A stretch of DNA of 32,835 bases, from contig CAMBNY010000033.1 of NCBI GenBank assembly GCA_945869165.1, forward strand, positions 1-32,835, given 5' to 3'. The stretch is from Comamonas sp. lk (GTDB lineage Bacteria > Pseudomonadota > Gammaproteobacteria > Burkholderiales > Burkholderiaceae_C). The notes under the pieces were generated by a model. The model did no database searches, was not told where the DNA came from, and worked only from the letters and a program-made list of their open reading frames with translations. Below are positions 1,987 through 29,596 of the stretch, piece after piece; the first letter of the stretch is position 1, and each line of letters opens with the position of its first letter. The translations under genes were made by a program, and so were the position numbers.

Positions 1987-2015
1987 AGCTGAAGAATCCT
2001 TTGGAATTGCAAAAA

Positions 2016-5378: not shown

Positions 5379-5407
5379 TACACATTCCAAGCGCCACTAC
5401 GTCCACC

Positions 5408-7338: not shown

Positions 7339-7341
7339 GCC

Positions 7342-7647: not shown

Positions 7648-7660
7648 AAGGATTGTTTTC

Positions 7661-9406: not shown

Positions 9407-9410
9407 AATT

Positions 9411-9480
9411 CGTCATTGCGAGGCCGAAGGCCGTGGCAATCCATGCATTCGTTTTGAGGTCGAGGGCCGTGGCAATCCAA
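9411..9480. repeat. REP-like unit plus degenerate second unit after ureC
   Basis: A full unit CGTCATTGCGAGGCCGAAGG...GGCAATCCAT (9411-9444) is followed by a decayed direct copy ending GGGCCGTGGCAATCCAA (9446-9480). Both fall between the ureC stop and the 3' end of the antisense AbrB-like gene, within the urease transcription unit. Confidence 0.75.
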
Positions 9481-9481
9481 G

Positions 9482-9664
9482 TCAATCGGTAGGCTTTTGA
9501 AAAAGGAGTTTGGTTTCTGAGGCGTTGGCGTAAATCAACATACCATTGGGTGCGGGCTCTACATGGAGTTCGTCGCCTAGCGAAACCTGGAGACGCTGGC
9601 ACAAGGCCTCTGGAAGAATGATTCCGATCTCGCCATCCACGTCAATCAATTTCAGTTCAATCAT
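9482..9664 (-). CDS. AbrB/MazE-like antitoxin-type DNA-binding protein, antisense within urease cluster
   Basis: 60 residues with the swapped-hairpin pattern of the SpoVT-AbrB/MazE fold: KLIDVDGEIGIILPEALCQR, then LQVSLGDELHVEPAPNG. A strong ribosome site (GGAGG, about 5 bases before ATG) supports the start. TTCAATGATTGAA across the start codon is palindromic and could be its own operator. It is encoded opposite to ureC and ureE, filling the gap between them. No toxin gene follows it, so it is either an orphan antitoxin or a stand-alone regulator. Its transcript would run antisense toward ureC. Confidence 0.75.
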   Translation of the reverse strand: MIELKLIDVDGEIGIILPEALCQRLQVSLGDELHVEPAPNGMLIYANASETKLLFQKPTD

Positions 9665-9697
9665 TGAAACCTCCTTTGCTACAGCAACACTATAACT

Positions 9698-10309
9698 ATG
9701 ACAAGCCTCAAAGTATCCAAACTAATTCCCCAAGGCCAAGGCCTGGCGCCCGTGATGGTCAAGCGGGCGGCCACGCTGGAGTTGGACTGGGATGTTCGGC
9801 AAAAAAGCCGGTTTGAAGCCACCGATAGCGCCGGGCGCAGTATTGGTGTGTTCCTGCCGCGCGGTACGGTGTTGCGGGGCGGGGATGTATTGGTAACCGA
9901 GGACGGTTCGCTAGTGCGCGCTATCGCCGCGCCGCAGGCGGTGTTGAAGATTACGCACTGCACGCAGCACGGCACGCCCTACGACTTGATACGCGCCGCC
10001 TACCACCTGGGCAACCGGCATGTGCCCATTGAATTGAAGCCCGACCACCTGAAGATCGAGCCCGACCATGTGCTGGCCGACATGTTGCGCGCCATGCATC
10101 TGATCGTGCACGCGGTAGACGAAAGCTTTGAGCCGGAAAACGGCGCCTATGCCACCGGCGGGCACGCGCATGGGCACAGCCACGGAGGCCATGGCGACCA
10201 TGACCACGAGCACAAACACGAAGGCCACGACCACGCGCATGCACATGATGTCCAAGCGCATGACCATAGGCACGAAGGCCATGGTCCCGATCACGGCCAT
10301 ACGCACTAG
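9698..10309 (+). CDS. ureE: Urease accessory protein UreE (nickel metallochaperone) with long His tail
   Basis: 203 residues. The N-terminal peptide-binding domain covers roughly 1-75 and the metal-binding domain roughly 76-145, with [12 protein letters not shown] and the [17 protein letters not shown] region. The last 50 residues are an extended His/Asp/Glu/Gly tail rich in HGH, HDH and HEH repeats ending GPDHGHTH, the nickel-storage tail seen in Klebsiella-type UreE. It delivers nickel to UreG/UreD/UreF for urease maturation. Confidence 0.96.
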
Positions 10310-10333
10310 AGACACTGTGCAAGCCCTCAAAGC

Positions 10334-10412
10334 CGTCATTGCGAGGCCGAAGGCCGTGGCAATCCATGGGTTCATGGACTGCCACGTCGCTGCCGCTCCT
10401 CGCAGTGACGGG
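10334..10412. repeat. REP-like inverted pair between ureE and ureF
   Basis: CGTCATTGCGAGGCCGAAGG (10334 onward) with GGCAATCCATGG faces an inverted unit CATGGACTGCCACGTCGC ending CTCCTCGCAGTGACGG. The pair can fold into a long hairpin in the urease mRNA. It leads directly into the 24-bp tandem array. Confidence 0.8.
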
Positions 10413-10541
10413 ACTAGTGCGCGTCGCAGTGACGGGACTAGTGCGCGTCGCAGTGACGGGACTAGTGCGCGTCGCAGTGACGGGAATGTTGCGCGCTGCA
10501 GTGACGGGACTTTTTCGCGCCGCAGTGACGAGATTGCCGCT
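10401..10541 (+). repeat. Six-copy 24-bp tandem array derived from a REP arm
   Basis: Copies of CGCAGTGACGGGACTAGTGC plus four bases begin at 10401, 10425, 10449, 10473, 10497 and 10521. The first four are nearly identical, the last two diverged. The core CGCAGTGACGG is the outer arm of the REP unit just upstream, so the array arose by amplifying one end of that element. It ends about 5 bp before the ureF start codon. Confidence 0.85.
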
Positions 10542-10545
10542 CCCC

Positions 10546-11223
10546 ATGCTTGACACCAGCCTCTTGCAGCTCATGTGGCTGGCATCGCCGGCTTTGCCTA
10601 TTGGGGGGTTTTCGTATTCCGAGGGGCTGGAGGCGGCGGTGGATACTGGCTTGGTGCGCGACGAGCACGAGGCTGCGGCTTGGTTGGTAGAGCAATTGCA
10701 ACTGGGCCTGGCGCGCGCCGAGCTGCCGGTGTTGGCCCAAGCCTGGCAGGCTTGGCAGGATGGGGATGCAGCGGCGATAGAGGCGCTCAACGCCTGGGTG
10801 CTGCAGACCCGCGAAAGCGCCGAGCTGCGTGCCCAGACCGAGCAAATGGGCCGCTCTTTGCTGGAATGGCTGCGCAACCACACCACCGCGCCGCCAGCGC
10901 ACATAGAGCAACTCGCCGCCCACAGCCCCAGCTACCCGGTGGCCTTTGCGCTAGCGGCCTACAGCACCCAAGCGCCGCAGCGCGCCTGCCTGCTGGCCTA
11001 TGCCTTTGGCTGGGCCGAAAACATGGCGCAGGCGGCTATCAAATCGGTGCCGCTGGGCCAAAGCGCGGGCCAGCGCATCTTGTCCTCGCTCAGCGCCGCC
11101 ATACCGCCTGCCGTGGACCACGCGCTGAGCCTGCCCGCGGGCGCGCAACAATCGTTCTCGCCCATGCTGGCCATCTTGTCGGCGCAGCATGAAGTGCAAT
11201 ATTCCCGCCTGTTTCGTTCGTAA
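10546..11223 (+). CDS. ureF: Urease accessory protein UreF
   Basis: 225 residues, the usual size. It starts [20 protein letters not shown] with [14 protein letters not shown], the canonical UreF N-terminus, so ATG 10546 is chosen; the same frame is open upstream to 10339 only because it runs through the REP/tandem-repeat array. UreF bridges UreD and UreG and acts in GTP-dependent urease activation. No clear ribosome site is visible before the start, probably because the repeat array has replaced the original leader. Confidence 0.94.
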
Positions 11224-11245
11224 AAAGCCCCTGGAGAGAAGTCCC

Positions 11246-11902
11246 ATGTCCGCACTGCACCACATCGCCCACCGCACCAAAAAATTACCACCCCTGCGCG
11301 TAGGCATAGGCGGCCCCGTGGGCTCGGGCAAAACCACTTTGCTAGAAATGCTGTGCAAAGCCATGCGCGACAAGTACGACCTGGTGGCCATCACCAACGA
11401 CATCTACACCAAAGAAGACCAGCGCCTGCTCACCGTGAGCGGTGCGCTGCCGGCCGAGCGCATCATGGGCGTAGAGACCGGCGGCTGCCCGCACACCGCC
11501 ATCCGCGAAGACGCGTCCATCAACCTGGAAGCCATAGACCGCATGCTGGTGGACTTCCCCGAGGCGGACATTGTGTTTATCGAAAGCGGCGGCGACAACC
11601 TGGCCGCCACCTTCAGCCCCGAACTGTCGGACCTGACCATCTACGTGATTGACGTGGCAGCGGGCGAAAAAATCCCCCGCAAAGGCGGCCCCGGCATTAC
11701 CAAGAGCGATTTGTTCATCATCAACAAAACCGACCTGGCCCCCCACGTAGGCGCCAACCTGGACGTGATGCACGCCGACACCACCCGCATGCGCAGCACC
11801 CCCAAAGGCCTGCGCCCTTTCGTCATGACCAACCTGAAAACGCTAAGCGGGCTGGGGGAGGTGGTTAGTTTTATTGAGACTAAGGGGATGTTGGTGGGGT
11901 AA
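11246..11902 (+). CDS. ureG: Urease accessory GTPase UreG
   Basis: 218 residues. P-loop GGPVGSGKT lies at 22-30, followed by [11 protein letters not shown], the metal-binding GGCPH motif ([16 protein letters not shown]), [17 protein letters not shown] and the specificity segment [15 protein letters not shown] 11246 has GGAGAGAA upstream; an earlier in-frame start lies inside ureF. It hydrolyses GTP to drive nickel insertion into urease. It is the last gene of the cluster and converges on a minus-strand gene 85 bp away; no clear terminator is visible. Confidence 0.97.
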
Positions 11903-14593: not shown

Positions 14594-15817
14594 CTAAGCC
14601 TGCGCCTCAGCCTCCGGCCACAGGCTGGGAAAGTAAAAGCGCAGTGCGTGCTGCGGTACGCCTAGGCGCACTTTGCCGTAGGGGGTGTCCGATAGCAGTA
14701 GGCCGCGCTTTAGCAGGGCCGCCACTTGGGCGGTGGCCAAGCGTTCGCCCAGGCCGAGCATGGCTTTGAAGTCGGCGCGCTCTAGGTCGGATTGGGTGGC
14801 AAAAAGGTAGTGCAGGGCGCGCAGTGCTTCGCGCCGTACGCCTTGGCGCACTACTTGTTCTTCGTAGGCCAGGCAGGCGGCGATGCGTTCTTTCATGCCC
14901 AGCGGCGCTAGCTGGCCGGCCATGAAGTCCACCTGGTCTATGCATACGTCCAGCACGTAGCCGATCCAGGCCAGCAGGCCCGCTTCGCTGAGGTTGCCGC
15001 GCCCGTCGAGGTCGCCGGCGCGGGCTTCGTCGGCAGCGGCTAGGTGTGCGTAGTAAGCCGCTTGGGTGCGCGCAAACCCGCGCAAGGGGGACCACAGTCC
15101 GTTGCTAAGGCCCATGTGGCTGAGCACCAGGTGGCTGTGCAGCCGGGCGACGCGGCCGTTGCCATCGACAAAGGGGTGTATCCAGGCTAGGCGTTGGTGT
15201 GCTGCTGCCATGGCCAGTACTTGCATTTCGCCACGCCGCACGTGGCCGTACACATCGGCCCAGCGCTGCATGAAGGCGGGCAGTTCTGCGGCAGTGGGTG
15301 CGGCATGGCGCCCCACGCTGACCTCGCGTTGGCGCATGCGCCCGGGCACGAATACGGAAGTGTCTTTGCCCTTGCCTTGTATGCGGTCGGCGTCGGGTAA
15401 GCGGGCAAATAGGTCTTGGTGGATATCGCACACCGTTTGCGGCGACCAGACTTGCTGTGCCGTCCATTGCGGCCCCAGGGTTTCCAGCTGGGCTTCGGTG
15501 GCCATGTGCGCCAAGGCCAGGCGTTGGCGACGCGCTTTGTCGGCGTCTTGTGCGTAGTCTTTGCGCAGGGCTTGTTCGATTTCCAGGGGCAGTGTGTGCT
15601 GGCCTTCAATGCGATTGGAGTAGTACGAGTTCATGGCCCGAAGCAACTGGCGCAGGCCCGGCAGCGCACCGGCCAGGCTGGCCCCGGATAGGCGGTCGGC
15701 CTTGCGGATGAGTTCGTGTGCCCGCTCCAAGGCGGGCCCCAACCGCAGCTCGGACGGCAGCAGCGGCTCCATCTGCGAGGGATGGTCGTAAAGCGAGAAT
15801 TTTTGCGACTTTGTCAT
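14594..15817 (-). CDS. Fic family protein (AMP-transferase, self-inhibited class II)
   Basis: 407 residues. The catalytic Fic motif HPFVDGNGRVAR is intact at 214-225 (H214 base, R222 and R225 for ATP phosphates). An N-terminal inhibitory motif SNRIEG (67-72) fits the (S/T)xxxE(G/N) pattern of class II Fic proteins, so the enzyme should be held off by its own helix. The N-terminus (about 1-95) is the Fic_N type, and the C-terminal 60 residues look like a winged helix (RADFKAMLGLGERLATAQVA then GLLLSDTPYGKVRLGV). It probably adenylylates a protein partner and may bind DNA. A palindrome sits 5 bp before its start. It is bracketed by 198-bp direct repeats. Confidence 0.92.
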   Translation of the reverse strand: MTKSQKFSLYDHPSQMEPLLPSELRLGPALERAHELIRKADRLSGASLAGALPGLRQLLRAMNSYYSNRIEGQHTLPLEIEQALRKDYAQDADKARRQRLALAHMATEAQLETLGPQWTAQQVWSPQTVCDIHQDLFARLPDADRIQGKGKDTSVFVPGRMRQREVSVGRHAAPTAAELPAFMQRWADVYGHVRRGEMQVLAMAAAHQRLAWIHPFVDGNGRVARLHSHLVLSHMGLSNGLWSPLRGFARTQAAYYAHLAAADEARAGDLDGRGNLSEAGLLAWIGYVLDVCIDQVDFMAGQLAPLGMKERIAACLAYEEQVVRQGVRREALRALHYLFATQSDLERADFKAMLGLGERLATAQVAALLKRGLLLSDTPYGKVRLGVPQHALRFYFPSLWPEAEAQA

Positions 15818-18435: not shown

Positions 18436-18792
18436 TTAGTGGCTGATCATCCACGGGCGTTTGTTGGCAAAGGACTTGGGCGCTTTGGGCTGGCCGTTGT
18501 CCATTTTGGAGCGGGCTTGCGCCAGTGCGCCGTCTTGTTTGCCCGAGCAGCATCCGCAGCCGCGCGGATGGCGAAAGCGCGAGGAGTGCTGCGGCTCGTG
18601 CCGCGCGCGCTCGTTGGTCGCTTCCGCTATCCGCGTGAAGGGGTCCATGTCCGCCAGCCTTGGTGCGCTGATCAGGACGCGGTCAGCATCCTGGGCGCAG
18701 GCGGGGCAGGCGGCGGACTCTTCGCGCCGGGAAATGCTGCGTATGGCCTCGAACGGGCCGCAGGCCAGGCATTCGTAGTCGTACAGAGGCAT
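18436..18792 (-). CDS. fmdB: FmdB family zinc-ribbon protein
   Basis: 118 residues from ATG 18792; an upstream frame extension overlaps fmdA and is excluded. The N-terminus MPLYDYECLACGPFEAIRSI with C8/C11 and C29/C32 (CPAC) is the FmdB zinc ribbon, followed by ISAPRLADMD. The C-terminal half has a Gly/Cys cluster (GCGCCSG) and a basic tail. In Methylophilus methylotrophus FmdB is linked to formamidase expression as a putative regulator. It starts 16 bp after the fmdA stop. Confidence 0.9.
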   Translation of the reverse strand: MPLYDYECLACGPFEAIRSISRREESAACPACAQDADRVLISAPRLADMDPFTRIAEATNERARHEPQHSSRFRHPRGCGCCSGKQDGALAQARSKMDNGQPKAPKSFANKRPWMISH

Positions 18793-18808
18793 AGGGTGGG
18801 CCTTTCGT

Positions 18809-20041
18809 TTACTTGAGGTCCGGCGACAAGGGCATGTCGATGCCGTGGAAGTTTTGCACCGCTGGCCCGGCGGCGCTGGGGTTGATGTCAAAGTCAAATA
18901 TCTGCGTGGGTAGCCATAAGGTGGCGCAGGAGTTGGGTATATCCACCACGCCGCTGATATGGCCTTGCACCGGCGCCGTGCCCAATATCGACAAGGCCTG
19001 CGCGCGGCTGTAGCCGAACTTTGTCATGTATTCGATAGCGTTCAGGCAGGCCTGGCGGTAGGCCACGTTCACGTCCAGGTAATGCTGCTTGCCGTGCTCA
19101 TCGACCGAGATGCCTTCGAAGATGATGTAGTCGTTGTACTGCGGCGTCATCGGGCTGGGCTTGAAGATGGGGTTCTTGATACCGTAGGTCGCCATGCCGC
19201 CTTTGAGGATGGATACGCGCATATGCACCCAGCCGGCCATTTCGATCGCGCCGCAGAAGGTGATCTCGCCATCGCCTTGGCTAAAGTGCAGATCGCCCAC
19301 GCTCAGGCCAGCGCCATCGACATAGACCGGAAAGTAAATCTTCGATCCGCGTGACAAGTCTTTGATATCGCAGTTGCCGCCATGCTCGCGCGGGGGCACG
19401 GTGCGTGCGCCTTCGGCAGCGGCTTTGGCTTTGGCATCGCCTTTGAGGCGGCCCATGTGCGCGGTGCTGGGGAAGGGCGCGTTGGCCAAAGGCGGCACGC
19501 GGTCTGGCTCGGTGGCGATGAGGCCGACTTCGCGCTCGTTCCATTTGCCCAGTAGCGAGGGGTCAGGCAGGCAGCCGATCAGGCCGGGGTGGATCAGGCC
19601 GGCATAGCGCACGCCGGGCACATGGCGCGAGTGCGTGAACATGCCCTGGATGTCCCAGATGGACTTTTGCGCTTGTGGGAAGTGGTCGGTCAGGAAGCCG
19701 CCGCCGTTTTTCTTGGAGAAAAATCCGTTAAAGCCCCACATCGATTCTTGCTTGGCACCGATGTCCAGCAGCTCGACCACCAGCAGGTCGCCAGGCTTGG
19801 CACCTTTGACGCCAACCGGGCCGCTCAAAAAGTGAACGATAGACAGGTCGATGTCGCGCACGTCGTCCGCGCTGTTGTTGTTTTTGATGAAGCCGCCGGT
19901 CCAGTCGTAGGTTTCCAGCACGAAGTCGTCGCCGGGGTTGACCCAGGTGGCCATGGGGATGTCCGGGTGCCAACGGTTGTGGATGTTTTCGTTTTCGTAG
20001 GGCGATTGGTTGAGGTCAACCTTGATGAGAGTTTCCGGCAT
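18809..20041 (-). CDS. fmdA: Formamidase
   Basis: 410 residues, matching the ~407-residue Methylophilus enzyme. It hydrolyses formamide (and some short amides) to formate and ammonia in the cytosol. Family segments seen: LIKVDLNQSPYENENIHNRW, HFLSGPVGVKGAKPGDLLVV, GMFTHSRHVPGVRYAGLIHP, GGNCDIKDLSRGSKIYFPVY, VGDLHFSQGDGEITFCGAIE. AAGGAG precedes ATG 20041. It follows urtE by 47 bp in the same operon, so substrate import and hydrolysis are co-expressed. Confidence 0.95.
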   Translation of the reverse strand: MPETLIKVDLNQSPYENENIHNRWHPDIPMATWVNPGDDFVLETYDWTGGFIKNNNSADDVRDIDLSIVHFLSGPVGVKGAKPGDLLVVELLDIGAKQESMWGFNGFFSKKNGGGFLTDHFPQAQKSIWDIQGMFTHSRHVPGVRYAGLIHPGLIGCLPDPSLLGKWNEREVGLIATEPDRVPPLANAPFPSTAHMGRLKGDAKAKAAAEGARTVPPREHGGNCDIKDLSRGSKIYFPVYVDGAGLSVGDLHFSQGDGEITFCGAIEMAGWVHMRVSILKGGMATYGIKNPIFKPSPMTPQYNDYIIFEGISVDEHGKQHYLDVNVAYRQACLNAIEYMTKFGYSRAQALSILGTAPVQGHISGVVDIPNSCATLWLPTQIFDFDINPSAAGPAVQNFHGIDMPLSPDLK

Positions 20042-20088: not shown

Positions 20089-20778
20089 TCAGACCGAAAG
20101 CATTTTTCGGATGTGGGCGGTGTCGGTAGAGGCGCGCGGGCTTTCGTGCACCAGGCGGCCGCCTTCGATAACGAAGAGGCGGTCAGCCACGTCCAGCGCA
20201 AAGCTGAGCACTTGCTCGGAGACGACGATAGAAATCTTGCGCGTCTCGCGAATGCGGTTGAGCGCGCGGGCAATGTCTTTGATGATGGAGGGCTGTATGC
20301 CTTCGGTGGGCTCGTCGAGCAGCAGCACTTTGGGGTTGCTGACCAGGGCGCGGGCAATCGCCAGTTGTTGTTGTTGCCCGCCCGATAGGTTGCCGCCTTT
20401 GCGGCTGCGCATGTCGTGCAGCACCGGGAAGAGTTCGTAAATTTCATCGGGCACGGTTGTGAGCTGCGATTGCTCCATGCCGGTCTCGATGTTTTCCAGC
20501 ACCGTGAGGTTGGGGAAGATCATGCGGCCCTGGGGTACATAGGCCACGCCGCGCGCTACGCGTTGGTAGCTTTCTTCTTGCGATATTTCCTGGCCGTCGA
20601 TGGTGATGGTGCCGGCCTTGACTGGCAATATGCCAATAAGGGCTTTGAACAGCGTGGTTTTTCCCATGCCGTTGCGGCCCATGATGGCAATGGTTTCGTT
20701 AGGCTTTGCGGTGAAGCTGACGCCATGCAAGGCCTCGCTTTGGCCGTAGCTGACATGCAGGTCGGTGACTGTAAGCAT
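20089..20778 (-). CDS. urtE: Urea/short-amide ABC transporter ATPase UrtE
   Basis: 229 residues, LivF-like. Walker A GRNGMGKTT (about 34-42), signature LSGGQQQQLAIARAL and Walker B VLLLDEPTEGIQPSI are intact. It energises import with UrtD. Fifth gene of the urt run; its start is 9 bp after the urtD stop. In Methylophilus, equivalents near fmdAB (fmdDEF) handle amides, so substrate may be urea, formamide or both. Confidence 0.95.
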   Translation of the reverse strand: MLTVTDLHVSYGQSEALHGVSFTAKPNETIAIMGRNGMGKTTLFKALIGILPVKAGTITIDGQEISQEESYQRVARGVAYVPQGRMIFPNLTVLENIETGMEQSQLTTVPDEIYELFPVLHDMRSRKGGNLSGGQQQQLAIARALVSNPKVLLLDEPTEGIQPSIIKDIARALNRIRETRKISIVVSEQVLSFALDVADRLFVIEGGRLVHESPRASTDTAHIRKMLSV

Positions 20779-20787: not shown

Positions 20788-21531
20788 TCAATGGCCGAGG
20801 TAAACGTCGATCACGCGGGGGTCGGCCTGCACGTCTTCCATGGCGCCCTCGGCCAAAATCTTTCCTTGGTGCATGACGGTGACCTTGTGTGCGATTTGTT
20901 TGACGAAGTTCATGTCGTGCTCGATCACGATCATGGAGCGGCCTTTGCAGATGCGGTTGAGCAGCTCGGCGGTAAGTTCGCGCTCGCGCACGCTCATGCC
21001 GGCGATAGGCTCGTCCAGCATCAGCAGTTCGGGGTCTTGCATCAGCAGCATGCCGATTTCCAGCCATTGCTTCTGCCCGTGCGAGAGCAGGCCCGCTTCG
21101 ATGGCCAATACATCTTGCAGGCCGATTTCTTCGGCCACGGCTTGCATGCGTTCACGCACTTGGGGCGTGCAGGTAAAGGCCAACGCGCCAAACACGCCGC
21201 GCCCGCTGGGATACGACACTTCCAGGTTTTGAAAGACGCTGAGGTTTTCGTAAATTGAGGGCGTTTGGAACTTGCGCCCGATACCGGCGCGCACAATTTT
21301 GTGTTCGGCCTCTTTGCTGATTTCCTGGTTCTTAAAGCGGATGCTGCCGCTGGTGGCGCGGGTACGGCCACAGATCAAATCGAGCAGAGTAGTTTTACCG
21401 GCGCCGTTGGGGCCGATGATGACGCGCAACTCGTCTTTTTCTACTTGCAGGTTGAGGGACTCGATGGCGTTAAAGCCGTCGAAGGCGACCGTCAGCTTCT
21501 CGATGGTCAGTACGTTGTTGGTAGTGCTCAC
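20788..21531 (-). CDS. urtD: Urea/short-amide ABC transporter ATPase UrtD
   Basis: 247 residues from GTG 21531, chosen because GGAGAA lies just upstream and the homologous start (VSTTNNVLTIEKLTVAFDGF) begins there; the ATG at 21723 in this frame lies inside urtC. Walker A is IGPNGAGKTTLLDL, signature LSHGQKQWLEIG, Walker B LLMLDEPIAGMS. LivG-like. It starts 13 bp after urtC. Confidence 0.94.
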   Translation of the reverse strand: MSTTNNVLTIEKLTVAFDGFNAIESLNLQVEKDELRVIIGPNGAGKTTLLDLICGRTRATSGSIRFKNQEISKEAEHKIVRAGIGRKFQTPSIYENLSVFQNLEVSYPSGRGVFGALAFTCTPQVRERMQAVAEEIGLQDVLAIEAGLLSHGQKQWLEIGMLLMQDPELLMLDEPIAGMSVRERELTAELLNRICKGRSMIVIEHDMNFVKQIAHKVTVMHQGKILAEGAMEDVQADPRVIDVYLGH

Positions 21532-21544
21532 GTTCTTCTCCGGC

Positions 21545-22654
21545 TTAGGACTGGGCACTGGGGCCGGCGGACAAGCCCATGCGCTTGCGCAACCAGGGGC
21601 GTATGCGAGTGTTGTAGACGCCGGCCAGGCCATCGGGGAAGGCCAGCACCACGGCGATAAACATGGCAGCCATGGCAAACAGCCACAGGTCTGGGAAGCG
21701 TTCGGAGAAATAGGTTTTGCCAAAGTTGACCAAGAGCGTGCCCCAGACCGCGCCGATCAAAGACATGCGCCCGCCGACTGCGGCAAAGATGACCAGCTCG
21801 ATGCTGGGCACGATGCCCAAGAGCGTGGGCGACATAAAGCCCACTTGCAGCGTGAACAAAGCGCCGCCTATGCCCGAGAGCATGGCCGCCAGGCAGAAGG
21901 CAAACACGCGAAAGGACGCTACGTCGTAGCCCGAAAAGCGCACCCGGTCTTCTTTATCGCGCATGGCCAGCAGCAAGGTGCCCAGCTTGCTGCGCTGTAT
22001 CCAGGCGCAGCCTGTGATGGTGATCAAGAGCAGCACCACGGTGAGGTAGTACAAGATGACTTTGGCGCTGTCGGTGCGGGTGTCCCAGCCGAGTACAGTT
22101 TTGAGGTCGGTCATGCCGTTGAGGCCGCCGGTATAGCCTTGCTGGCCGATGATGAGCACCGTCATGATCAGCGCCACGGCCTGCGTGATGATGGCGAAAT
22201 ACACGCCACCAATGCGCCTGCGGAACAAGGCATAGCCCATCAGGAAAGCAAAGAGTGTGGGTACCACCAAGATGGCAATGATGGTGAAGGGCAGCGATTG
22301 GAAGGGCAGCCACCAAGTGGGCAGTTCGGTGAGGGAGTTCCAGTCCATGAAGTCGGGGATGCCGGGTGTGGACTGGATGCTGGTGGTGACCGGATCGGAC
22401 GCTTCGAGCTTGAGAAACATGGCCATGCAATAGCCACCCAGGCCAAAGAACACGCCCTGGCCCAAGCTGAGCACGCCGCCGTAACCCCACAGCATGACCA
22501 GGCCTAGCGCGACAAAGGAGTAGCTGAGGTATTTGCCAAGTAAGTTCAGGCGAAACATGTCGAGCGTCAGCGGAAAGACCACCAGCAGGATGAAGGCGAG
22601 CAGCAGCAGGCCGCCTAATGATTTACGTTGGAACCAATTGAAGAGTGCGGTCAT
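21545..22654 (-). CDS. urtC: Urea/short-amide ABC transporter permease UrtC
   Basis: 369 residues from ATG 22654 (MTALFNWFQRKS); an earlier in-frame ATG at 22726 overlaps urtB. LivM-type permease with about nine membrane helices, and family segments LSYSFVALGLVMLWGYGGVL, SLGQGVFFGLGGYCMAM and RDKEDRVRFSGYDVASFRVF. It pairs with UrtB in the inner membrane. Confidence 0.94.
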   Translation of the reverse strand: MTALFNWFQRKSLGGLLLLAFILLVVFPLTLDMFRLNLLGKYLSYSFVALGLVMLWGYGGVLSLGQGVFFGLGGYCMAMFLKLEASDPVTTSIQSTPGIPDFMDWNSLTELPTWWLPFQSLPFTIIAILVVPTLFAFLMGYALFRRRIGGVYFAIITQAVALIMTVLIIGQQGYTGGLNGMTDLKTVLGWDTRTDSAKVILYYLTVVLLLITITGCAWIQRSKLGTLLLAMRDKEDRVRFSGYDVASFRVFAFCLAAMLSGIGGALFTLQVGFMSPTLLGIVPSIELVIFAAVGGRMSLIGAVWGTLLVNFGKTYFSERFPDLWLFAMAAMFIAVVLAFPDGLAGVYNTRIRPWLRKRMGLSAGPSAQS

Positions 22655-22703
22655 GGGTGTGCCTGTGCGGGGGGTGAATTCAGCTGGGACTCGGGGCAGG
22701 CCA

Positions 22704-23618
22704 TCAGCGGCGTACCTTGGAGGCAAACAGGCCTTGCGGGCGGAACATAAGAATCAAAACAATGGAGGAATAGGTCAGCACACGGCCGTTGGAGCCGTCC
22801 ATAAAGAACTCGCTGATGGCCTGGGTCTGCGCGATCAGGAAGGCCGAGATCACGGTGCCAAACAGGTTGGCGGTGCCACCGAAGGTGACGACTAAAAACG
22901 AGTCCACGATGTACAGCGAGCCGCTGGTCGGGCCCGTGGAGCCGATGGTGGTAAAGGCGGCGCCTGCAATACCGGCGATGCCGCTGCCGATGGCAAAGGT
23001 GAGGCGGTCGGTCTTGCGCGTGTTGATGCCGGTGGCATTGGCCATGGGCCGGTTGGCTACGGTAGCGCGCACGCGCAGGCCCCAACGGGAATGGTTCAGG
23101 GCCATGATGACGCAGCCAGTGACGAGAATGGTCAAACCCATGACGAACAAGCCGTTTATCGGGATGTCCAAGCCTTCGACCGGGGTGAGCGAGCCCATGA
23201 TCCAGTCGGGCAAAGTGCCGCTCACTTCTTTACCGCCAAAGGTGGAGCGAAAGACTTGCTGCATGCCCAAGGAGACGCCCCAGGTGGCCAGCAGGGTATC
23301 GAGCGGACGTTTGTAGAGGTGGCGGATGACGGTCCATTCCAGCGCCCAACCAGCCACGAACGCCAGCACGAAGGAAATGAGAATGGCGATGGGGAAGTAA
23401 AAGGGCAACAGCGCGGGCATGTGCACCTCGACCAAGCGGGAGGACACGTAAATCGTGTAGGCACCAATCGTCATGAACTCGCCATGGGCCATGTTGATCA
23501 CGCCCATTTGTCCGAAGATGATCGCCAGGCCTAGGCCCATTAATAAGAGCACGGCAAACAGGCTCAGGCCTGAGAAGCCTTGCATGATGCCGATGTTGAG
23601 CATTTCGGAAAAGGTCAT
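22704..23618 (-). CDS. urtB: Urea/short-amide ABC transporter permease UrtB
   Basis: 304 residues, LivH-type. Segments: GLGLAIIFGQMGVINMAHGE near the N-terminus, WGVSLGMQQVFRSTFGG, and NRPMANATGINTRKTDRLTF in the cytoplasmic loop contacting the ATPases. It lacks the long periplasmic N-terminal extension seen in some UrtB. Separated from urtA by 89 bp holding a stem-loop. Confidence 0.94.
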   Translation of the reverse strand: MTFSEMLNIGIMQGFSGLSLFAVLLLMGLGLAIIFGQMGVINMAHGEFMTIGAYTIYVSSRLVEVHMPALLPFYFPIAILISFVLAFVAGWALEWTVIRHLYKRPLDTLLATWGVSLGMQQVFRSTFGGKEVSGTLPDWIMGSLTPVEGLDIPINGLFVMGLTILVTGCVIMALNHSRWGLRVRATVANRPMANATGINTRKTDRLTFAIGSGIAGIAGAAFTTIGSTGPTSGSLYIVDSFLVVTFGGTANLFGTVISAFLIAQTQAISEFFMDGSNGRVLTYSSIVLILMFRPQGLFASKVRR

Positions 23619-23707: not shown

Positions 23708-24967
23708 TTACTGGTAACCCTTAGGGAAAGGATCGGGCTCAACCAGCTCGGGTGAAATGGCCGCGATCTTGAATTGGCCGTCGGTTTGGCCCTGGCCAAT
23801 AATGGCTTTGCTCCACAGGTGGCGGTTGGTGTTGTGGATGCGGGTGTAGCCCATGGGCGCGTCTTTGAACTCGATACCGCCGCAGGCCGCAGAGACTTTG
23901 GTCACGTCAAAGCTGCCGGCTTTTTCGACCGCAAACTTCCACAGCCAGGGGCCGAGGTAGGCGTTTTGCGTCACATCGCCGACGACAGCATCCGCGCCGT
24001 ATTTGGCTTTGAATGCAGCCACAAACTTTTTGTTGTTCGGGTTGTCGATGGATTGGAAGTAATGGCAGGCAGAGTAAAAACCGGCGAAGTTCTCGCCGCC
24101 GATGCCCAGGACTTCGTCCTCGGTCACCGAGATGGTCAGCAGGAACTGCTTGTCACCGGTCACGCCCGCAGCCTTGAGCTGTTTGTAGAAGGCCACGTTG
24201 GAGCCGCCCACCACAATGGCGTAAATGCAATCGGGCTTGGCGGCCTTGATCTTGTTGATCATGGAGTTGAAGTTGGTATGACCCAGGGGGTAATACTCTT
24301 CGCCCACTACTTTGCCGCCTAGCTTTTTCTCGATGTGCTTGCGCGCGATTTTGTGCGAGGTGCGCGGCCAGATGTAGTCTGAACCGACGAGGTAGTAGGT
24401 CTTGGCTTTCTTCTCTTTGTTGGCCCAATCCAGGCTCCACAAAATTTGCTGTACCGCTTCTTGGCCGGTGTAGATGACGTTCATGCTTTGCTCCAGACCC
24501 TCGTACATGGTGGGGTAGTAGAGCAGGCCGTTTTCTTTTTCAAAGATAGGCAGCACGGCTTTGCGCGAGGCCGATGTCCAGCAGCCATACACAGAGGCAA
24601 CGCGGTCGTTGACCAGCAGCTTTTTGGCTTTTTCTGCAAAGGTGGGCCAGTCGGAGGCGCCGTCTTCCTTGATCACTTTGATCTTGCGGCCCAGGATGCC
24701 GCCCATGGCGTTGATCTGGTCAATGGCCAATTGCTCGGCCTGGATAGAGCCAGTCTCCGAGATGGCCATAGTGCCCGTAGCTGAGTGAAGCTGACCGACC
24801 GTGACTTCGGTATCGGTAACCGCCAGGCCGGTGGTGTTGACCTTGGCAGTGGGGAACTGCTGGGCCAGCGCCATAGAGGACATGCCCACCAGCGGTGAGG
24901 CTGAGAGTACTTTCAGAAGCTTGCGGCGCGTGGCGTCGAAAGCGGATTCGTCAAAATTGTTGGGCAT
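23708..24967 (-). CDS. urtA: Urea/short-amide ABC transporter substrate-binding protein UrtA
   Basis: 419 residues. A twin-arginine-like signal (TRRKLLKVLSASPLVG, RR at 14-15, AxA at about 34-36: ALAQQ) sends it to the periplasm. The mature protein is the Leu/Ile/Val-type periplasmic binding fold with VTVGQLHSATGTMAISETGS, INAMGGILGRKIKVIKEDGA and YTGQEAVQQILWSLDW, typical of UrtA/FmdD. AGGAGA precedes ATG 24967. It leads the operon urtABCDE-fmdAB and diverges from the sensor-kinase gene, sharing a 249-bp regulatory gap. Confidence 0.95.
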   Translation of the reverse strand: MPNNFDESAFDATRRKLLKVLSASPLVGMSSMALAQQFPTAKVNTTGLAVTDTEVTVGQLHSATGTMAISETGSIQAEQLAIDQINAMGGILGRKIKVIKEDGASDWPTFAEKAKKLLVNDRVASVYGCWTSASRKAVLPIFEKENGLLYYPTMYEGLEQSMNVIYTGQEAVQQILWSLDWANKEKKAKTYYLVGSDYIWPRTSHKIARKHIEKKLGGKVVGEEYYPLGHTNFNSMINKIKAAKPDCIYAIVVGGSNVAFYKQLKAAGVTGDKQFLLTISVTEDEVLGIGGENFAGFYSACHYFQSIDNPNNKKFVAAFKAKYGADAVVGDVTQNAYLGPWLWKFAVEKAGSFDVTKVSAACGGIEFKDAPMGYTRIHNTNRHLWSKAIIGQGQTDGQFKIAAISPELVEPDPFPKGYQ

Positions 24968-25103
24968 AGTGTCTCCTAGGGTTTACGCGGATGGTTAATA
25001 AAAGGCTTGGTGCTAGAACATGGTTCAGGTTTCAGTGATGGCGGTAATGGACAAAAAAGTGTTTGACCGCAACGAAGCGTAATCAACATACTCCGCACAC
25101 TGA

Positions 25104-25140
25104 ATACGTTATTTAACGTATGCGTATCCACATATACGCA
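25104..25140. promoter_or_regulatory. Double palindrome in the urtA / sensor-kinase intergenic region
   Basis: ATACGTTA-TT-TAACGTAT (25104-25121) is a perfect palindrome; counted as TACGTTA-2-TAACGTA it has the 7-2-7 inverted-heptamer layout used by NarL/LuxR-type response regulators. It is followed directly by TGCGTAT-6-ATACGCA (25121-25140), also perfect. The block lies about 137 bp upstream of urtA and 77-113 bp upstream of the kinase gene. It is the natural candidate site for the response regulator at 28587-29480. Confidence 0.6.
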
Positions 25141-25216: not shown

Positions 25217-28200
25217 ATGCGCACTTCTACGCAGAAGATTTTTCGTATCCGACGCGACTACAACGCCTGGGTGGCTGACGAGTCGATGGAGGACTACGCG
25301 CTGCGCTATACGCCACGCAGTTTTCGTAAATGGTCGGAGTGGCGGGTGGCCAATACCGCCTTGGGCGCGGTGTCGTTTTTGGCACTGGAAGCCATCGGCG
25401 GATCAATCGCATTGAGCTATGGTTTTTCGAATGCGATTTGGGCGATTTTGGTGGTGAGCCTGATCACGTTTTTGACCGCTTTGCCCATTAGCTATTACGC
25501 CGCGCGCTATGGCGTGGACATGGAGTTGCTGACACGCGGTGCGGGCTTTGGCTACTTGGGTTCGACCATTACCTCGCTGATTTATGCGAGCTTTAGCTTT
25601 ATCTTTTTTGCACTCGAAGCGGCCATCATGGCCGTGGCTTTGCAGATGTATTTGGACATACCCATAGGCTGGTGTTATGTCATCAGCGCGCTGGTGATTA
25701 TTCCGATGGTGGTGCGCGGTATTACGCTGATGTCCAAGCTGCAAATGTGGACACAGCCGGTGTGGGGCGTTTTGCTCTTGCTGCCTTATTTGGCAATTGC
25801 TTATAAGAACCCGCACGCGTTCAGCGACTTTACGGGTCTGACTGGGCGCATATCGGGCAGCAGTGGTTTTGACCCGCTGATGTTTGGCGCAGCGGCCACG
25901 GTGGCCTTTTCGCTAGTGGTGCAGGTGGGCGAGCAGGTGGACTTTCTGCGCTTTTTACCCGAACGCACTGCAGAAAATCGCAAGCGTTGGTGGGCCGCCG
26001 TGTTGATGGCCGGGCCGGGCTGGATTATTCCGGGTATGTTCAAAATGCTGGGCGGCGCTTTTTTGGCGTTTTTGGTCTTGCAAAGCCAGCTGCCGGTGCA
26101 TAAGGCCGTGGAGCCCACGCAAATGTATTTGGCCGGCTATGCCTATGTGTTTGAAGACCCGCAGTGGGTGCTGGCGGCCACGGTGCTGTTTGTGTTGGTG
26201 TCGCAGATAAAGATCAACCTGACGAATGCCTATGCCGGTTCGCTGGCCTGGTCTAACTTCTTTGCGCGCTTGACGCACAGCCACCCCGGGCGCGTGGTGT
26301 GGCTGGTGTTTAACGTGCTGATTGCCGTGCTGCTGATGACGCTGGGCGTGTTTCAGGCTTTGGAGATGGTGCTGGGTTTGTATGGCAATGTGGCGATTGC
26401 CTGGGTGGGCGCGCTGGTGGCCGACCTGGTGATTAACAAGCCCCTGGGCCTGAGCCCGCGCGGCATTGAGTTCAAGCGGGCGCACTTGTATGACGTGAAC
26501 CCGGTGGGGCTGGTGTCCATGATGCTTGCGGCTACCTTGTCCATCGCGGCCTACGTGGGTTTGCTGGGCGCAGAAGCGCAAGCCTTCGCGCCCTTTATTG
26601 CCTTGGGCACGGCGCTGGTGCTGTCGCCCTTATTGGCCTGGTGGACGCGCGGGCGCTACTACATCGCGCGCAAGCCGCACCGCCTAGGCCACCCGGGGCA
26701 GATGTTGGCCTGCAGTATTTGCGAAAACAAGTTTGAAGCCGAAGACATGGCACATTGTCCGGCCTATGGCGGCGCAATTTGTTCTTTGTGTTGCACGCTA
26801 GAGTCGCGCTGCCATGACAGATGCAAAACCGATTCGCGCGCGGCCGAGCAGGCGGTGCGTTGGCTCAATGCGTTTTTGCCGGAGCAGCTATCGCGCCGGG
26901 TGAATTTCCGGGTAGGGCACTACATGGTGGTGGCCTTTTCTTTGGTCACTTTGCTGGCTACTTTGATGGGAATGGTCTATACCCAGGAGTCGGCGATTGC
27001 GCTGGGCGCTGACCCGCTGGCGTTGCTGCAGTCGGCCTTCTTACAAGTGTTTGCGATTTTGCTTTTGGTGGTGGCTGCGTGTAGCTGGTGGATAGTGCTG
27101 GGCAGCGAGAGTCGCCGCATTGCGCAAGACGAATCCAACCGGCATAACCAGTTGTTGGAACAAGAGATAGAGGCGCACTCGCGCACCTATTCGGCGCTGA
27201 AGGAGGCCCGCGATGTCGCCGATTCGGCTAACCAGGCCAAGACCCGCTACGTGGCGGGTATGACGCACGAACTGCGTACACCACTCAACAGCATATTGGG
27301 CTACTCACAAATTTTGCTAAAGAACGATTTGCTACCGACTTCGCCACGCGAATCGGTGCGCACTATCCACCGCAGTGGCGAGCATTTGTTGGGCTTGATC
27401 GATGGCTTGCTGGACTTGTCACGCATCGAGGCCGGGCGTATGCAGCTAGACCCGTCGCCGCTGCATCTTCCCGATTTTTTAGAAGAACTGGTGCGCATGG
27501 TGCGCCCGCAGGTGCAGGCCAAGGGTTTGCAATTGGTGTTTGACGAAGGCGGCAACCCGCCGGAGTGGATTAATGCCGATGCCAAGCGATTGCGCCAGGT
27601 GATGATTAACCTGATCTCCAATGCCATCCGTTTTACCGACGATGGCACGGTGACCTTACGCGCCACCTATGGCCCGGATGTATTTCGCTTTGACGTGGTG
27701 GACACCGGCGTGGGCGTATTGCCGCAAGACCACCAGCGCATCTTTTTACCCTTTGAGCGCGGCACTGCCGGGCGGCGCCAAGGTGGCGAGCCCGGTACCG
27801 GCCTGGGTCTGTCTATCAGTGAGCAATTGACCACGCTGATGGGCGGCGAGCTGCAATTGCTATCCTCGTCCAGCAAGGGCAGTGTTTTTAGTGTGCGCCT
27901 GCCTTTGCAACTGGCAAGCCAGCCCGGCCACTACACCGACACGGTACGCGAGATTTTGGGCTATGTGGGTGCGCAGCGCACCTTGCTGGTGGTTGATGAC
28001 CAGACCACGCAGCGTCAGATGCTGGTGGGCATGTTGGCGCCACTGGGCTTTGCGCTGCGCGAGGCCGCCAGCGGCACCGAGTGCATTGCCAGCATTCAAG
28101 AGATGCGGCCCGATGCGGTGCTGCTGGATATCAGCATGGACGATATGGACGGCTGGCAGGCCGCTGGGCGCATTCGCCAGGCGGGCTTTGAGGATTTGCC

Positions 28201-28597
28201 CATCATCATGGTCTCGGCCAATGCCTTTGAAAACCAGCCCGAACGCTTGCGCGCCATGCGCTGCCAGGCGTTTGTGGCCAAGCCGATTTTGGAATCTGAA
28301 CTGATCAACACCTTGCAAGAACACCTGAACCTGGAATGGTGTTTTGCGCAAACTAGCGAGATCGATGTCGTGCCACAGGTTGCTGTGGCGCACAAAAACC
28401 TACCCCATGCGGTGCGCCAAGATTTATTGCGCTTGGCGCGCCTAGGCCATGTGCGCGGCCTGCAAACCGCGCTCGATGGCATCGCCCGCGCAGACCCGAG
28501 TTTCGAACCCGTATGCGCACAGCTTCTCGCACTGGTCACGCGCTTTGACCTCGATAGCCTGCAATCCCAATTGATGGAGCCTGAACATGCCGCCTAA
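25217..28597 (+). CDS. NCS1 permease-like / hybrid histidine kinase / receiver fusion protein
   Basis: 1126 residues. Residues about 10-490 form a nucleobase:cation symporter-1 (NCS1, purine/cytosine permease-like) transporter with about 12 helices (ANTALGAVSFLALEAIGGSI, SYYAARYGVDMELLTRGAGF, INLTNAYAGSLAWSNFFARL). Then comes a Cys-rich zinc-type module, C499xxC502 to C536 (CSICENKF, SLCCTLESRCHDRC), two further membrane helices, a HisKA domain with H684 (MTHELRTPLNS), a HATPase domain (NLISNAIRF, DTGVGV, GTGLGL) and a receiver with D971 (VLLDIS), ending in a helical tail. It is likely a membrane sensor that reads substrate occupancy or flux and signals to the regulator encoded next to it (11-bp overlap). 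Confidence 0.9.
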   Translation: MRTSTQKIFRIRRDYNAWVADESMEDYALRYTPRSFRKWSEWRVANTALGAVSFLALEAIGGSIALSYGFSNAIWAILVVSLITFLTALPISYYAARYGVDMELLTRGAGFGYLGSTITSLIYASFSFIFFALEAAIMAVALQMYLDIPIGWCYVISALVIIPMVVRGITLMSKLQMWTQPVWGVLLLLPYLAIAYKNPHAFSDFTGLTGRISGSSGFDPLMFGAAATVAFSLVVQVGEQVDFLRFLPERTAENRKRWWAAVLMAGPGWIIPGMFKMLGGAFLAFLVLQSQLPVHKAVEPTQMYLAGYAYVFEDPQWVLAATVLFVLVSQIKINLTNAYAGSLAWSNFFARLTHSHPGRVVWLVFNVLIAVLLMTLGVFQALEMVLGLYGNVAIAWVGALVADLVINKPLGLSPRGIEFKRAHLYDVNPVGLVSMMLAATLSIAAYVGLLGAEAQAFAPFIALGTALVLSPLLAWWTRGRYYIARKPHRLGHPGQMLACSICENKFEAEDMAHCPAYGGAICSLCCTLESRCHDRCKTDSRAAEQAVRWLNAFLPEQLSRRVNFRVGHYMVVAFSLVTLLATLMGMVYTQESAIALGADPLALLQSAFLQVFAILLLVVAACSWWIVLGSESRRIAQDESNRHNQLLEQEIEAHSRTYSALKEARDVADSANQAKTRYVAGMTHELRTPLNSILGYSQILLKNDLLPTSPRESVRTIHRSGEHLLGLIDGLLDLSRIEAGRMQLDPSPLHLPDFLEELVRMVRPQVQAKGLQLVFDEGGNPPEWINADAKRLRQVMINLISNAIRFTDDGTVTLRATYGPDVFRFDVVDTGVGVLPQDHQRIFLPFERGTAGRRQGGEPGTGLGLSISEQLTTLMGGELQLLSSSSKGSVFSVRLPLQLASQPGHYTDTVREILGYVGAQRTLLVVDDQTTQRQMLVGMLAPLGFALREAASGTECIASIQEMRPDAVLLDISMDDMDGWQAAGRIRQAGFEDLPIIMVSANAFENQPERLRAMRCQAFVAKPILESELINTLQEHLNLEWCFAQTSEIDVVPQVAVAHKNLPHAVRQDLLRLARLGHVRGLQTALDGIARADPSFEPVCAQLLALVTRFDLDSLQSQLMEPEHAA

Positions 28598-29480
28598 TCC
28601 ATCCCCCGAGAACCCGGTGGTACTGGTCGTCGATGACGCGCCCAGCAGCCTGGGTGTGTTGTGCGAAACCCTGGAGAGCGCGGGCTATACCGTGCTGGTA
28701 GCCAGTGACGGCGAAACCGCCTTGCAACGCCTGGAAATGATCACGCCCGATGCGATATTGCTGGACTGCGTGATGCCTGGGCTGTCGGGATTCGATACCT
28801 GTAGGCGGATCAAAAACAATACCGCGTGGGCACAAATTCCCGTGATTTTCATGACCGGTTTGTCTGATACCTTGCATGTGGTGGAAGGCTTTGCGTGTGG
28901 AGGCGTGGACTACGTGGTCAAACCCTTGCGCGCTGCCGAGGTGCTGGCGCGCTTGCACACGCATGCGCGCAATGCGCAGGTCAGCCGCATGGTGCGCGAC
29001 GCCTTGGATGTGGCCGGTTTGGGTGTGGTGTTGGTCGATGGCCTGGGCCGCATTGCCTGGCGCTCGCCCAAGGCTTCGCGGGCGCTTTTAAGCTTGCACG
29101 AGGGCGGGCCCGATTACGCAAGCACCAAGTTGCAACAAGCCTTGCAAGCCGTGCTGCAAGCCACAGGCGCCAGCGTAGATTGCAAAGACACCACGCCGCG
29201 CATGTCGCTGCGCAATATGGGCCAAACCTCTACCGGCGAGACCTTGGTGCTACTGGAAACCGAGCGCGCGGTATCCGCCATCGAATCGCGCCTGAAACAC
29301 GCGGCACTGACCGCGCGCGAAACCGAAGTGCTGTCCTGGATTGCCAAAGGCAAGACCAACCGCGATATTGCCGAGATACTGTCGCTGAGCCACCGCACGG
29401 TGAATAAGCATTTGGAGCATATTTACCAAAAGCTCGGTGTCGAGACCCGCGCAGCCGCAGCCGCAGTGGCGATGGGCTAG
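28587..29480 (+). CDS. NarL/LuxR-type response regulator
   Basis: 297 residues. Receiver at about 10-125 with phosphoacceptor D60 (ILLDCVMPG) and K112 (VVKPL); a PAS-like middle section (about 138-225, VAGLGVVLVDGLGRIAWRSP); LuxR-type HTH at about 240-297 (LTARETEVLSWIAKGKTNRD, IAEILSLSHRTVNKHLEHIY). It overlaps the sensor kinase gene by 11 bp, so the two are a cognate pair. Likely to bind the palindromes at 25104-25140 and to control urtABCDE-fmdAB and perhaps the urease genes (inference). Confidence 0.92.
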   Translation: MPPNPSPENPVVLVVDDAPSSLGVLCETLESAGYTVLVASDGETALQRLEMITPDAILLDCVMPGLSGFDTCRRIKNNTAWAQIPVIFMTGLSDTLHVVEGFACGGVDYVVKPLRAAEVLARLHTHARNAQVSRMVRDALDVAGLGVVLVDGLGRIAWRSPKASRALLSLHEGGPDYASTKLQQALQAVLQATGASVDCKDTTPRMSLRNMGQTSTGETLVLLETERAVSAIESRLKHAALTARETEVLSWIAKGKTNRDIAEILSLSHRTVNKHLEHIYQKLGVETRAAAAAVAMG

Positions 29481-29506: not shown

Positions 29507-29596
29507 GGAAGCTTGGCCGAGCGGTTTAAGGCACCGGTCTTGAAAACCGGCGAGGATGTGAGTCCTCCGTGAGTTCGAATCTCACAGCTTCCGCCA
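29507..29596 (+). tRNA. tRNA-Ser (anticodon UGA)
   Basis: 90 nt including the encoded CCA. Acceptor arms GGAAGCT and AGCTTCC pair fully; the D arm begins TGGCCGAGCGG; the anticodon arm CCGGTCTTGAAAACCGG carries TGA; a long class II variable arm follows; the T arm contains GTTCGAATC. It starts 26 bp after the response regulator stop. Confidence 0.96.

What the first reader, a model, noticed from the sequence alone, without database searches (positions are those of the whole stretch)
25217..29480. Transporter-like sensor kinase and LuxR-type regulator divergent from the urea/formamide operon
Seen: one 1126-residue chain joins a full NCS1 permease, a Cys-rich zinc-type module (C499-C536), extra membrane helices, HisKA (H684), HATPase and a receiver (D971), and overlaps a LuxR-type regulator gene by 11 bp. 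Known: SLC5-fused hybrid kinases CbrS and CbrA exist, and CbrS pairs with a LuxR-type regulator (CbrR). Inference: this is an NCS1 counterpart that senses a nitrogen compound (urea, formamide, ureide or nucleobase) and controls urtABCDE-fmdAB. The zinc module between permease and kinase may be the coupling element.
Basis: partly seen in the sequence, partly recalled or inferred. Interest (0 to 1): 0.75.

Follow-up and report, generated by a model that had tools for sequence, protein, structure and literature searches.

The report
Transporter-fused sensor for urea and formamide
A bacterial signalling protein whose sensing half looks like a nutrient transporter sits, with its partner gene switch, beside urea and formamide uptake genes in many bacteria, and a shared DNA signal in front of those genes suggests that the pair controls them.

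The parts
25217..28597 (+). hybrid sensor kinase gene, 1126 aa
25286..26668 (+). NCS1-like transporter domain (about residues 24-484)
26711..26824 (+). eight-cysteine module (C499, C502, C514, C522, C525, C526, C532, C536)
   Evidence: six Cys 169/169, two 168/169 in full-length fusions; weak RING/FYVE/treble-clef resemblance only
26906..27133 (+). two long hydrophobic helices (564-594, 598-639) leading to the kinase
   Evidence: model secondary structure, hydropathy
27236..27436 (+). HisKA domain, phospho-acceptor H684 at 27266-27268
27578..27910 (+). HATPase_c domain
27986..28315 (+). receiver domain, D971 at 28127-28129
28587..29480 (+). response regulator gene, receiver (12-123, likely D60) plus LuxR-type GerE DNA-binding domain (240-295), 297 aa, overlaps kinase by 11 bp
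25105..25120 (.). predicted operator TACGTTATTTAACGTA (10 of 12 positions of TACGTC-N4-GACGTA)
   Evidence: its 22-mer 25102-25123 scores 33.6 against 1.3 for the next best place in the window
25121..25140 (.). adjacent second inverted repeat TGCGTAT-N6-ATACGCA with related half-sites
   Evidence: read from sequence; not tested further
23708..24967 (-). urtA, substrate-binding protein of the lower-scoring, fmd-linked class
   Evidence: TIGR03407 509.6 bits, cut-off 492.75; class from the score split
22704..23618 (-). urtB
   Evidence: TIGR03409 over cut-off
21545..22726 (-). urtC
   Evidence: TIGR03408 over cut-off
20788..21585 (-). urtD (start uncertain)
   Evidence: TIGR03411 over cut-off
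20089..20778 (-). urtE
   Evidence: TIGR03410 over cut-off
18809..20041 (-). fmdA, formamidase
   Evidence: NF045496 759 bits, cut-off 500
18436..18897 (-). Zn_ribbon_8 protein (FmdB by recall)
   Evidence: PF09723
5255..11902 (+). urease cluster ureD, ureA, ureB, ureC, ureE, ureF, ureG (likely metabolic partner, not shown to be controlled here)

Best explanation
The two genes are a dedicated two-component system for urea/short-amide uptake and use. The kinase is a transceptor: an NCS1-like transporter fold reused as the sensor. It binds urea, formamide or a related small amide; the change of conformation passes through the eight-cysteine module and two more helices into the kinase dimer; H684 is phosphorylated, D971 and then D60 of the LuxR-type regulator follow. 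The regulator binds the palindrome at 25105-25120 between urtA and the kinase gene and activates urtABCDE-fmdA and probably its own operon. Shown by sequence: the architecture, the conserved residues, the linkage and the palindrome. Inferred: the ligand, the order of phosphotransfer, binding by this regulator, activation rather than repression, and coupling through the cysteine module.
For: Linkage: 51 of 67 order-level loci and 37 of 39 phylum-level loci have urt, fmd or ure genes nearby; 75 of 80 closest genome-contig loci by a looser rule (biased to close relatives); 0 of 20 control stretches from genomes of the same sets. A regulator-like match follows the kinase on the same strand in 60 of 67, 69 of 80 and 36 of 39 loci. 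Co-occurrence: 59 of 65 kinase genomes have UrtA against 80 of 334 others, odds ratio 31 (kinship not corrected). Operator: 68 of 68 promoters at 10 or more of 12 positions, 33 perfect; of 1360 Markov-resampled ones 11 reach 10 and none more. The other two places with the strict pattern in the own genome lie inside reading frames. Where urtA lies downstream of the regulator or far upstream of the kinase, a site stands 54-193 bp before urtA in 10 of 14 such loci scanned; a second site stands 74-89 bp before fmdA in 8 Pseudomonas/Stutzerimonas loci; 13 of 18 separate urtA promoters of kinase-positive genomes against 0 of 20 in kinase-negative ones. Fold. Amide context of the nearest stand-alone relative seen.
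Against: No ligand, binding or expression data. 16 of 67 order-level loci are unlinked (7 of these cut by a contig end): two lie by nif genes and several among unrelated genes. In the wider phylum set only 12 of 27 divergent promoters reach 10 of 12 positions; 19 of 27 have the looser TACG-N8-CGTA and three have neither. Of 14 loci with urt-ure genes upstream of the kinase on its own strand, 9 have no site of score 9 or more. The 13 loci scanned in which the kinase lies by ureC show no site near the kinase. The regulator was not found behind the kinase in 5 of 67, 3 of 80 and 3 of 39 loci, besides 2 and 8 that are too short. A receiver plus a separate regulator would classically need an Hpt domain; none is found and H1078 is not conserved. 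UrtA-positive genomes without the kinase are common (80 of 334), so the kinase is not needed for urt as such.
Confidence: 0.7

Rival explanations
1. The kinase senses a classical NCS1 substrate (nucleobase, hydantoin, allantoin) whose breakdown yields urea, and so induces urea and formamide use indirectly.
For: The nearest solved structures are the cytosine transporter CodB and the hydantoin transporter Mhp1; allantoin and purine breakdown can yield urea (established knowledge).
Against: No purine or allantoin genes turned up among the 20 ORFs scanned at loci of this family, but this was no systematic search for them; fmdA linkage is not explained by purines; the nearest stand-alone relative seen lies in an amidase/AmiC-like/AmiR operon.
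Confidence: 0.17
2. The fused domain is a working urea/amide transporter, and the kinase reports transport flux rather than binding alone, as has been considered for CbrA and histidine.
For: Nine of ten residues checked in two motifs of the domain are invariant in 169 sequences (E239, Q240, D242, R245, Q330, K332, N334, N337, Y339; T336 in 161); [quoted passage not shown]
Against: An ABC importer for the same solutes is encoded next door; the Amt-kinase fusion of Kuenenia binds but does not translocate its ion (PMC5764959, passages). Conservation alone does not tell binding from transport.
Confidence: 0.3
3. The system reads general nitrogen status or ammonium, and urt/fmd/ure is only one target among many.
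For: Some loci lie by nifHD (L063, L064); in D. aromatica a histidine kinase of 1131 aa and a CheY-like gene beside urtA sit in a nif region (PMC2907700, passages; identity with this family inferred from size and place).
Against: In this genome the strict operator pattern occurs three times (its reversed control once), and the other two lie inside reading frames, so a wide regulon is not seen here, at this stringency and in a genome estimated 84 percent complete.
Confidence: 0.13
4. The palindrome belongs to another regulator and the kinase pair is only a passenger of the urt locus.
For: Binding by the encoded regulator has not been shown; kinase-negative and kinase-positive genomes differ in kinship, so the contrast may be partly phylogenetic; the 13 ureC-linked kinases scanned have no site near the kinase.
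Against: The palindrome is absent from 20 of 20 kinase-negative urtA promoters in the tested stretch and present in 13 of 18 separate kinase-positive ones; it also stands between kinase and urtA in divergent pairs, as expected for autoregulation.
Confidence: 0.1

Closest known systems
CrbS/CrbR and CbrA/CbrB (SLC5-STAC histidine kinases), RpuS/RpuR
   Same: An SLC5 transporter domain fused to a histidine kinase; CrbR is LuxR-type and needs an imperfect inverted repeat at its targets; the targets are use genes for the nutrient (PMC5715377 and PMC9100948, passages; PMC13022988, section 6).
   Different: Here the transporter is NCS1-like, the piece between transporter and kinase is an eight-cysteine module plus two hydrophobic helices rather than a recognised STAC bundle, and the linked pathway is urea/formamide, not acetate, histidine or pyruvate.
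Ks-Amt5, ammonium transporter-histidine kinase of Kuenenia
   Same: A nitrogen-compound transporter fold recruited as a kinase sensor (PMC5764959, passages).
   Different: Amt fold, trimeric core, no cysteine module or receiver in the architecture described in the passages read, different solute.
NCS1 permeases CodB and Mhp1
   Same: Fold, over residues 19-510 at most.
   Different: 16-20 percent identity in the structural alignments; no PF02133 match; carries a kinase.
AmiC/AmiR amidase regulation
   Same: Amide-responsive control of an amidase operon (established knowledge); the nearest stand-alone relative of the sensor domain seen is encoded in such an operon.
   Different: AmiC/AmiR is a soluble binding protein with an antiterminator, not a kinase.
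Bare listings of the locus in print
   Same: PMC2907700 lists a 1131-aa histidine kinase and a 308-aa CheY-like protein beside UrtA; PMC13296017 lists a hybrid kinase and a LuxR-type regulator with a second urtABCDE (passages).
   Different: In the passages I read, neither remarks on a transporter domain, an operator or a sensory role.

Membership tests
NCS1 transporters (TC 2.A.39) | LeuT-type fold closest to solved NCS1 members | tested here: met
NCS1 transporters (TC 2.A.39) | Match to Pfam Transp_cyt_pur (PF02133) over its cut-off | tested here: not met
   None in the window protein at E<=1; 0 of 31 relatives at E<=0.1. So I call it NCS1-like, not a filed member
NCS1 transporters (TC 2.A.39) | Homology to NCS1 by profile or through an intermediate | tested here: met
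   hhalign P 98.9, E 2.2e-17 over 417 columns against CodB plus two stand-alone permeases, of which only CodB passes the PF02133 cut-off; 28 percent identity over 486 columns with a stand-alone permease that passes it
NCS1 transporters (TC 2.A.39) | Transport of a solute | not testable with these tools
   needs uptake assay
SLC5-STAC histidine kinases | SLC5 (SSS) transporter domain | tested here: inconclusive
   SSS chains appear below NCS1 (e.g. CHT1 23.8, DUR3 23.5)
SLC5-STAC histidine kinases | STAC four-helix bundle before the kinase | tested here: inconclusive
   Residues 496-528 are modelled as strands and a short helix, then four helices of which the last two are hydrophobic; no STAC structure was compared
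Hybrid histidine kinases | HisKA, HATPase_c and receiver with His and Asp | tested here: met
   H684 and D971 in 169 of 169
NarL/LuxR-type response regulators | Receiver plus GerE domain | tested here: met
   also seen in the P. oryzihabitans locus
Zinc finger (treble clef/RING/FYVE) | Significant match to a finger family | tested here: inconclusive
Urea ABC transporter plus formamidase | UrtA-E and FmdA over curated cut-offs | tested here: met

The most novel reading that the evidence does not exclude
A widespread, undescribed class of transceptor kinases in which an NCS1-like transporter fold serves as the receptor for urea/formamide and an eight-cysteine, probably two-metal finger, in the place of STAC, couples it to the kinase, with its own operator code (TACG-N8-CGTA) seen in promoters from more than one class of the phylum.
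Probability: 0.45. Interest if true: 0.78.

Novelty: new variant of a known kind. Interest (0 to 1): 0.68.

Why it matters
Transporter-fused kinases are few and their coupling is an open question. This would add a second LeuT-fold type with a different coupling piece, in a family with thousands of sequences, and it gives a likely sensor and operator for urea and formamide use in common soil and water bacteria. The operator makes the system testable at once with a reporter, and the two parallel designs (SLC5 with STAC, NCS1-like with a cysteine module) allow a direct comparison of how a transporter fold drives a kinase.

Tried and rejected
Rejected: PF02133 as the route to NCS1 (no match); a PDB sequence-profile search (no NCS1 hit at E<=10); an Hpt domain at the kinase's C-terminus (H1078 is Tyr in 108, His in 37 of 169); a named zinc-finger family for the cysteine module (the zinc-finger rows rest on very short stretches).

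Led nowhere: a search with residues 1-490 to find stand-alone permeases returned mostly cut copies of the fusion in its top 120; the large ORFs beside unlinked loci were ordinary genes; high-G+C ORF clustering contained shadow ORFs, so linkage counts rest on tblastn instead. The first regulator recount could count the kinase's own receiver, so one search replaces it.

Counts and dropped rows: one search gave 72 rows; 67 strong rows besides the window were fetched, 3 weak rows (G223 and two pieces in G178) were fetched for comparison only and one (G347, 94 aa) was not. One search gave 59 rows: 16 already in the order set, 39 fusions and one stand-alone permease fetched; G591, G668 and a 94-aa fragment (G622) not fetched. 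(47 of 67) lacked a canonical UrtA query; (51 of 67) replaces it. The 80 loci are the best of at least 574 relatives. Of 186 fusion proteins read, 17 outside 1050-1200 aa were dropped. The promoters are divergent pairs within 1 kb whose urtA is at least 60 percent identical to the window's: 76, of which 68 non-redundant. The shuffles are first-order Markov resamplings, and the operator consensus was found in the same promoters that were then scored; the window's own site was left out of the PWM. by set, sites of score 9 or more: ureC-linked 2 of 13 (one of them before a urtA); urt-ure upstream on the same strand 5 of 14; canonical urtA downstream 8 of 10 (7 of them before urtA); fmd upstream on the same strand 4 of 4 (3 before urtA); nif or unlinked 3 of 8, none of these 3 before a tested gene. 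The separate-urtA test used 18 urtA genes of kinase-positive genomes (7 within 27 kb of a kinase, 5 further off on its contig, 6 on another contig) and 20 of 19 kinase-negative genomes, chosen by hand from the list; several are from one genus, no tree correction was made, and the pattern and stretch were fixed after seeing (PWM 9 or more: 13 of 18 and 1 of 20). Outside the tested stretch the pattern occurs in L276, L277, L278 and L279 of the kinase-positive set and twice in L256 of the kinase-negative set; L280 has none. The control stretches were also placed by hand. Names atpI and ccoN for the two ORFs holding the other own-genome sites are recalled from the sequences. FmdB, TC numbers and the expectation that NarL/LuxR-type domains bind inverted half-sites are also recalled.

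Papers: passages only for PMC2907700, PMC13296017, PMC13209695, PMC5715377, PMC5764959, PMC11109136, PMC9100948, PMC8399564; outline with abstract and one section for PMC13022988; others in search listings only. That the fusion is not described in print rests, which cover only the open-licence library.
Full report
WHAT IS THERE. The window is one contig of a 2.64-Mb, 81-contig genome estimated 84 percent complete. ORF 25217-28597 encodes 1126 residues and overlaps ORF 28587-29480 (297 residues) by 11 bp. Pfam gives HisKA, HATPase_c and Response_reg in the first, Response_reg and GerE in the second. Divergently lie urtA, urtB, urtC, urtD, urtE and fmdA, each over its NCBIfam cut-off, then a Zn_ribbon_8 protein. 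A urease cluster ureDABC-EFG occupies 5255-11902, and a tRNA-Ser follows the regulator gene.

DISTRIBUTION AND NEIGHBOURHOOD. A search with residues 1-640 was capped at 7999 candidates, and all 7999 passed E<=0.001. In the order, 67 of 399 genomes have a match, 65 of them strong; in the phylum sample 53 of 398. With one exception and one 94-aa fragment, the 59 phylum-level rows lie in open frames of 894 codons or more, that is, fusions. Within about 11 kb upstream and 9 kb downstream, 51 of 67 order-level and 37 of 39 phylum-level fusion loci have urtA, three or more urt genes, fmdA or two or more ure genes; both phylum-level exceptions end at a contig end 0 and 375 bp upstream. Twenty control stretches of the same size, placed by hand in 20 genomes of these sets, have none. 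Of the 80 closest relatives in genome contigs, 75 are linked by a looser rule, among them Variovorax, Pseudomonas, Stutzerimonas, Burkholderia and Methylophaga. A regulator-like match follows the kinase in 60 of 67, 69 of 80 and 36 of 39 loci. By genome, 59 of 65 with the fusion have UrtA against 80 of 334 without. Of nine unlinked order-level loci with full flanks, three have urtA at 9-9.5 kb, just outside the fetched stretch, and two lie by nifHD.

THE OPERATOR. From 76 divergent urtA-kinase promoters of the order set and the 80 closest loci, 68 non-redundant ones were scanned. A palindrome TACGTC-N4-GACGTA stands out: 33 perfect, 26 with 11 and 9 with 10 of 12 positions; of 1360 resampled promoters 11 reach 10 and none more. 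The window's site is 25105-25120; its 22-mer scores 33.6 against 1.3 for the next best place in the window, while the best of ten resampled windows reached 14.2. The pattern TACGT-N6-ACGTA occurs three times in the genome, its reversed control once, and the other two lie inside reading frames. In the wider phylum set the picture is looser: 12 of 27 divergent promoters reach 10 of 12 positions, 19 of 27 hold TACG-N8-CGTA, and three hold neither; several of the outer ones read like ATACGCA-N4-TGCGTAT.

THE SITE AND ITS GENE. In many loci the site goes with urtA rather than with the kinase. Of ten loci with canonical urtA downstream of the regulator, seven have a site of score 9 or more 54-181 bp before urtA, one has a site not assigned to a gene and two have none; of four with fmd and urt upstream on the kinase's strand, three have one 192-193 bp before urtA. 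In eight Pseudomonas and Stutzerimonas loci a second site stands 74-89 bp before fmdA, with more. Against the idea: of 14 loci with urt-ure genes upstream of the kinase nine have no site, and the 13 scanned in which the kinase lies by ureC show none near the kinase.

A COMPARISON. I took the promoters of 18 urtA genes of kinase-positive genomes that lie apart from the divergent pair (7 within 27 kb of a kinase, 5 further off, 6 on another contig) and of 20 urtA genes of kinase-negative genomes. TACG-N8-CGTA in the 720 bp before the urtA domain occurs in 13 of 18 and 0 of 20 (Fisher p 1.6e-6); by PWM it is 13 of 18 and 1 of 20. The genes were chosen by hand, kinship is not corrected and the pattern was fixed, so the p-value is only a guide. 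It is still the strongest sign that the regulator acts on urtA itself.

LIGAND. Nothing here measures it. Linkage to urt with fmd or ure points to urea and formamide. The nearest stand-alone relative seen is followed by a carbon-nitrogen hydrolase, an AmiC-like binding protein and an AmiR-type antiterminator: an amide operon. I therefore rank urea or a short amide above nucleobases.

KNOWN RELATIVES. SLC5-STAC kinases (CbrA, CrbS, RpuS) are built alike: transporter fold, coupling piece, kinase; CrbR, a LuxR-type regulator, needs an imperfect inverted repeat. The Kuenenia Amt-kinase shows that a nitrogen transporter can become a non-transporting sensor. The present family differs in transporter type and coupling piece. 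Two papers list such a kinase beside urt genes without, in the passages I read, remarking on its transporter half. None of ten paper searches found a description.

VERDICT. It is a new variant of a known kind, of good interest because each remaining step can be tested with simple experiments.

Noticed in passing
window 739-3752: CoA-transferase family III gene beside a three-domain thiamine-diphosphate enzyme gene; together they resemble a formyl-CoA transferase/oxalyl-CoA decarboxylase pair (names recalled), which could be linked to formate from formamide.
   Followed up: no
window 14594-15817: Fic/DOC-family protein between the urease cluster and fmdAB.
   Followed up: no
window 4206-5378: AAA_14/DUF4143 ATPase gene just upstream of ureD.
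   Followed up: no
window 29507-29596: tRNA-Ser (anticodon tga) directly downstream of the regulator gene.
   Followed up: no
window 25121-25140: Second inverted repeat with related half-sites abutting the predicted operator.
   Followed up: no
L093:10923-16230: Variant fusion of 1396 aa with added PAS and Hpt domains, followed by a receiver-HD regulator instead of a LuxR type.
   Followed up: no
L063 and L064: Fusion kinase beside nifH and nifD genes.
   Followed up: partly
L205:9949-14984: Stand-alone NCS1 permease in an apparent operon with a carbon-nitrogen hydrolase, AmiC-like and AmiR-like proteins: a candidate amide transporter.
   Followed up: partly
P0174, P0192, P0208: Relatives of the sensor domain in records named as cyanobacteria, with a similar cysteine module; their kinase parts are cut or barely recognised (for P0174 and P0208).
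   Followed up: no
P0163: A copy listed under a eukaryote source, 66 percent identical, with part of the kinase missing; probably bacterial contamination.
   Followed up: no
L061, L066, L067, L068, L073, L076: A second set of fusion kinases beside ureC without the palindrome near the kinase; they may read another operator or act in trans.
   Followed up: partly
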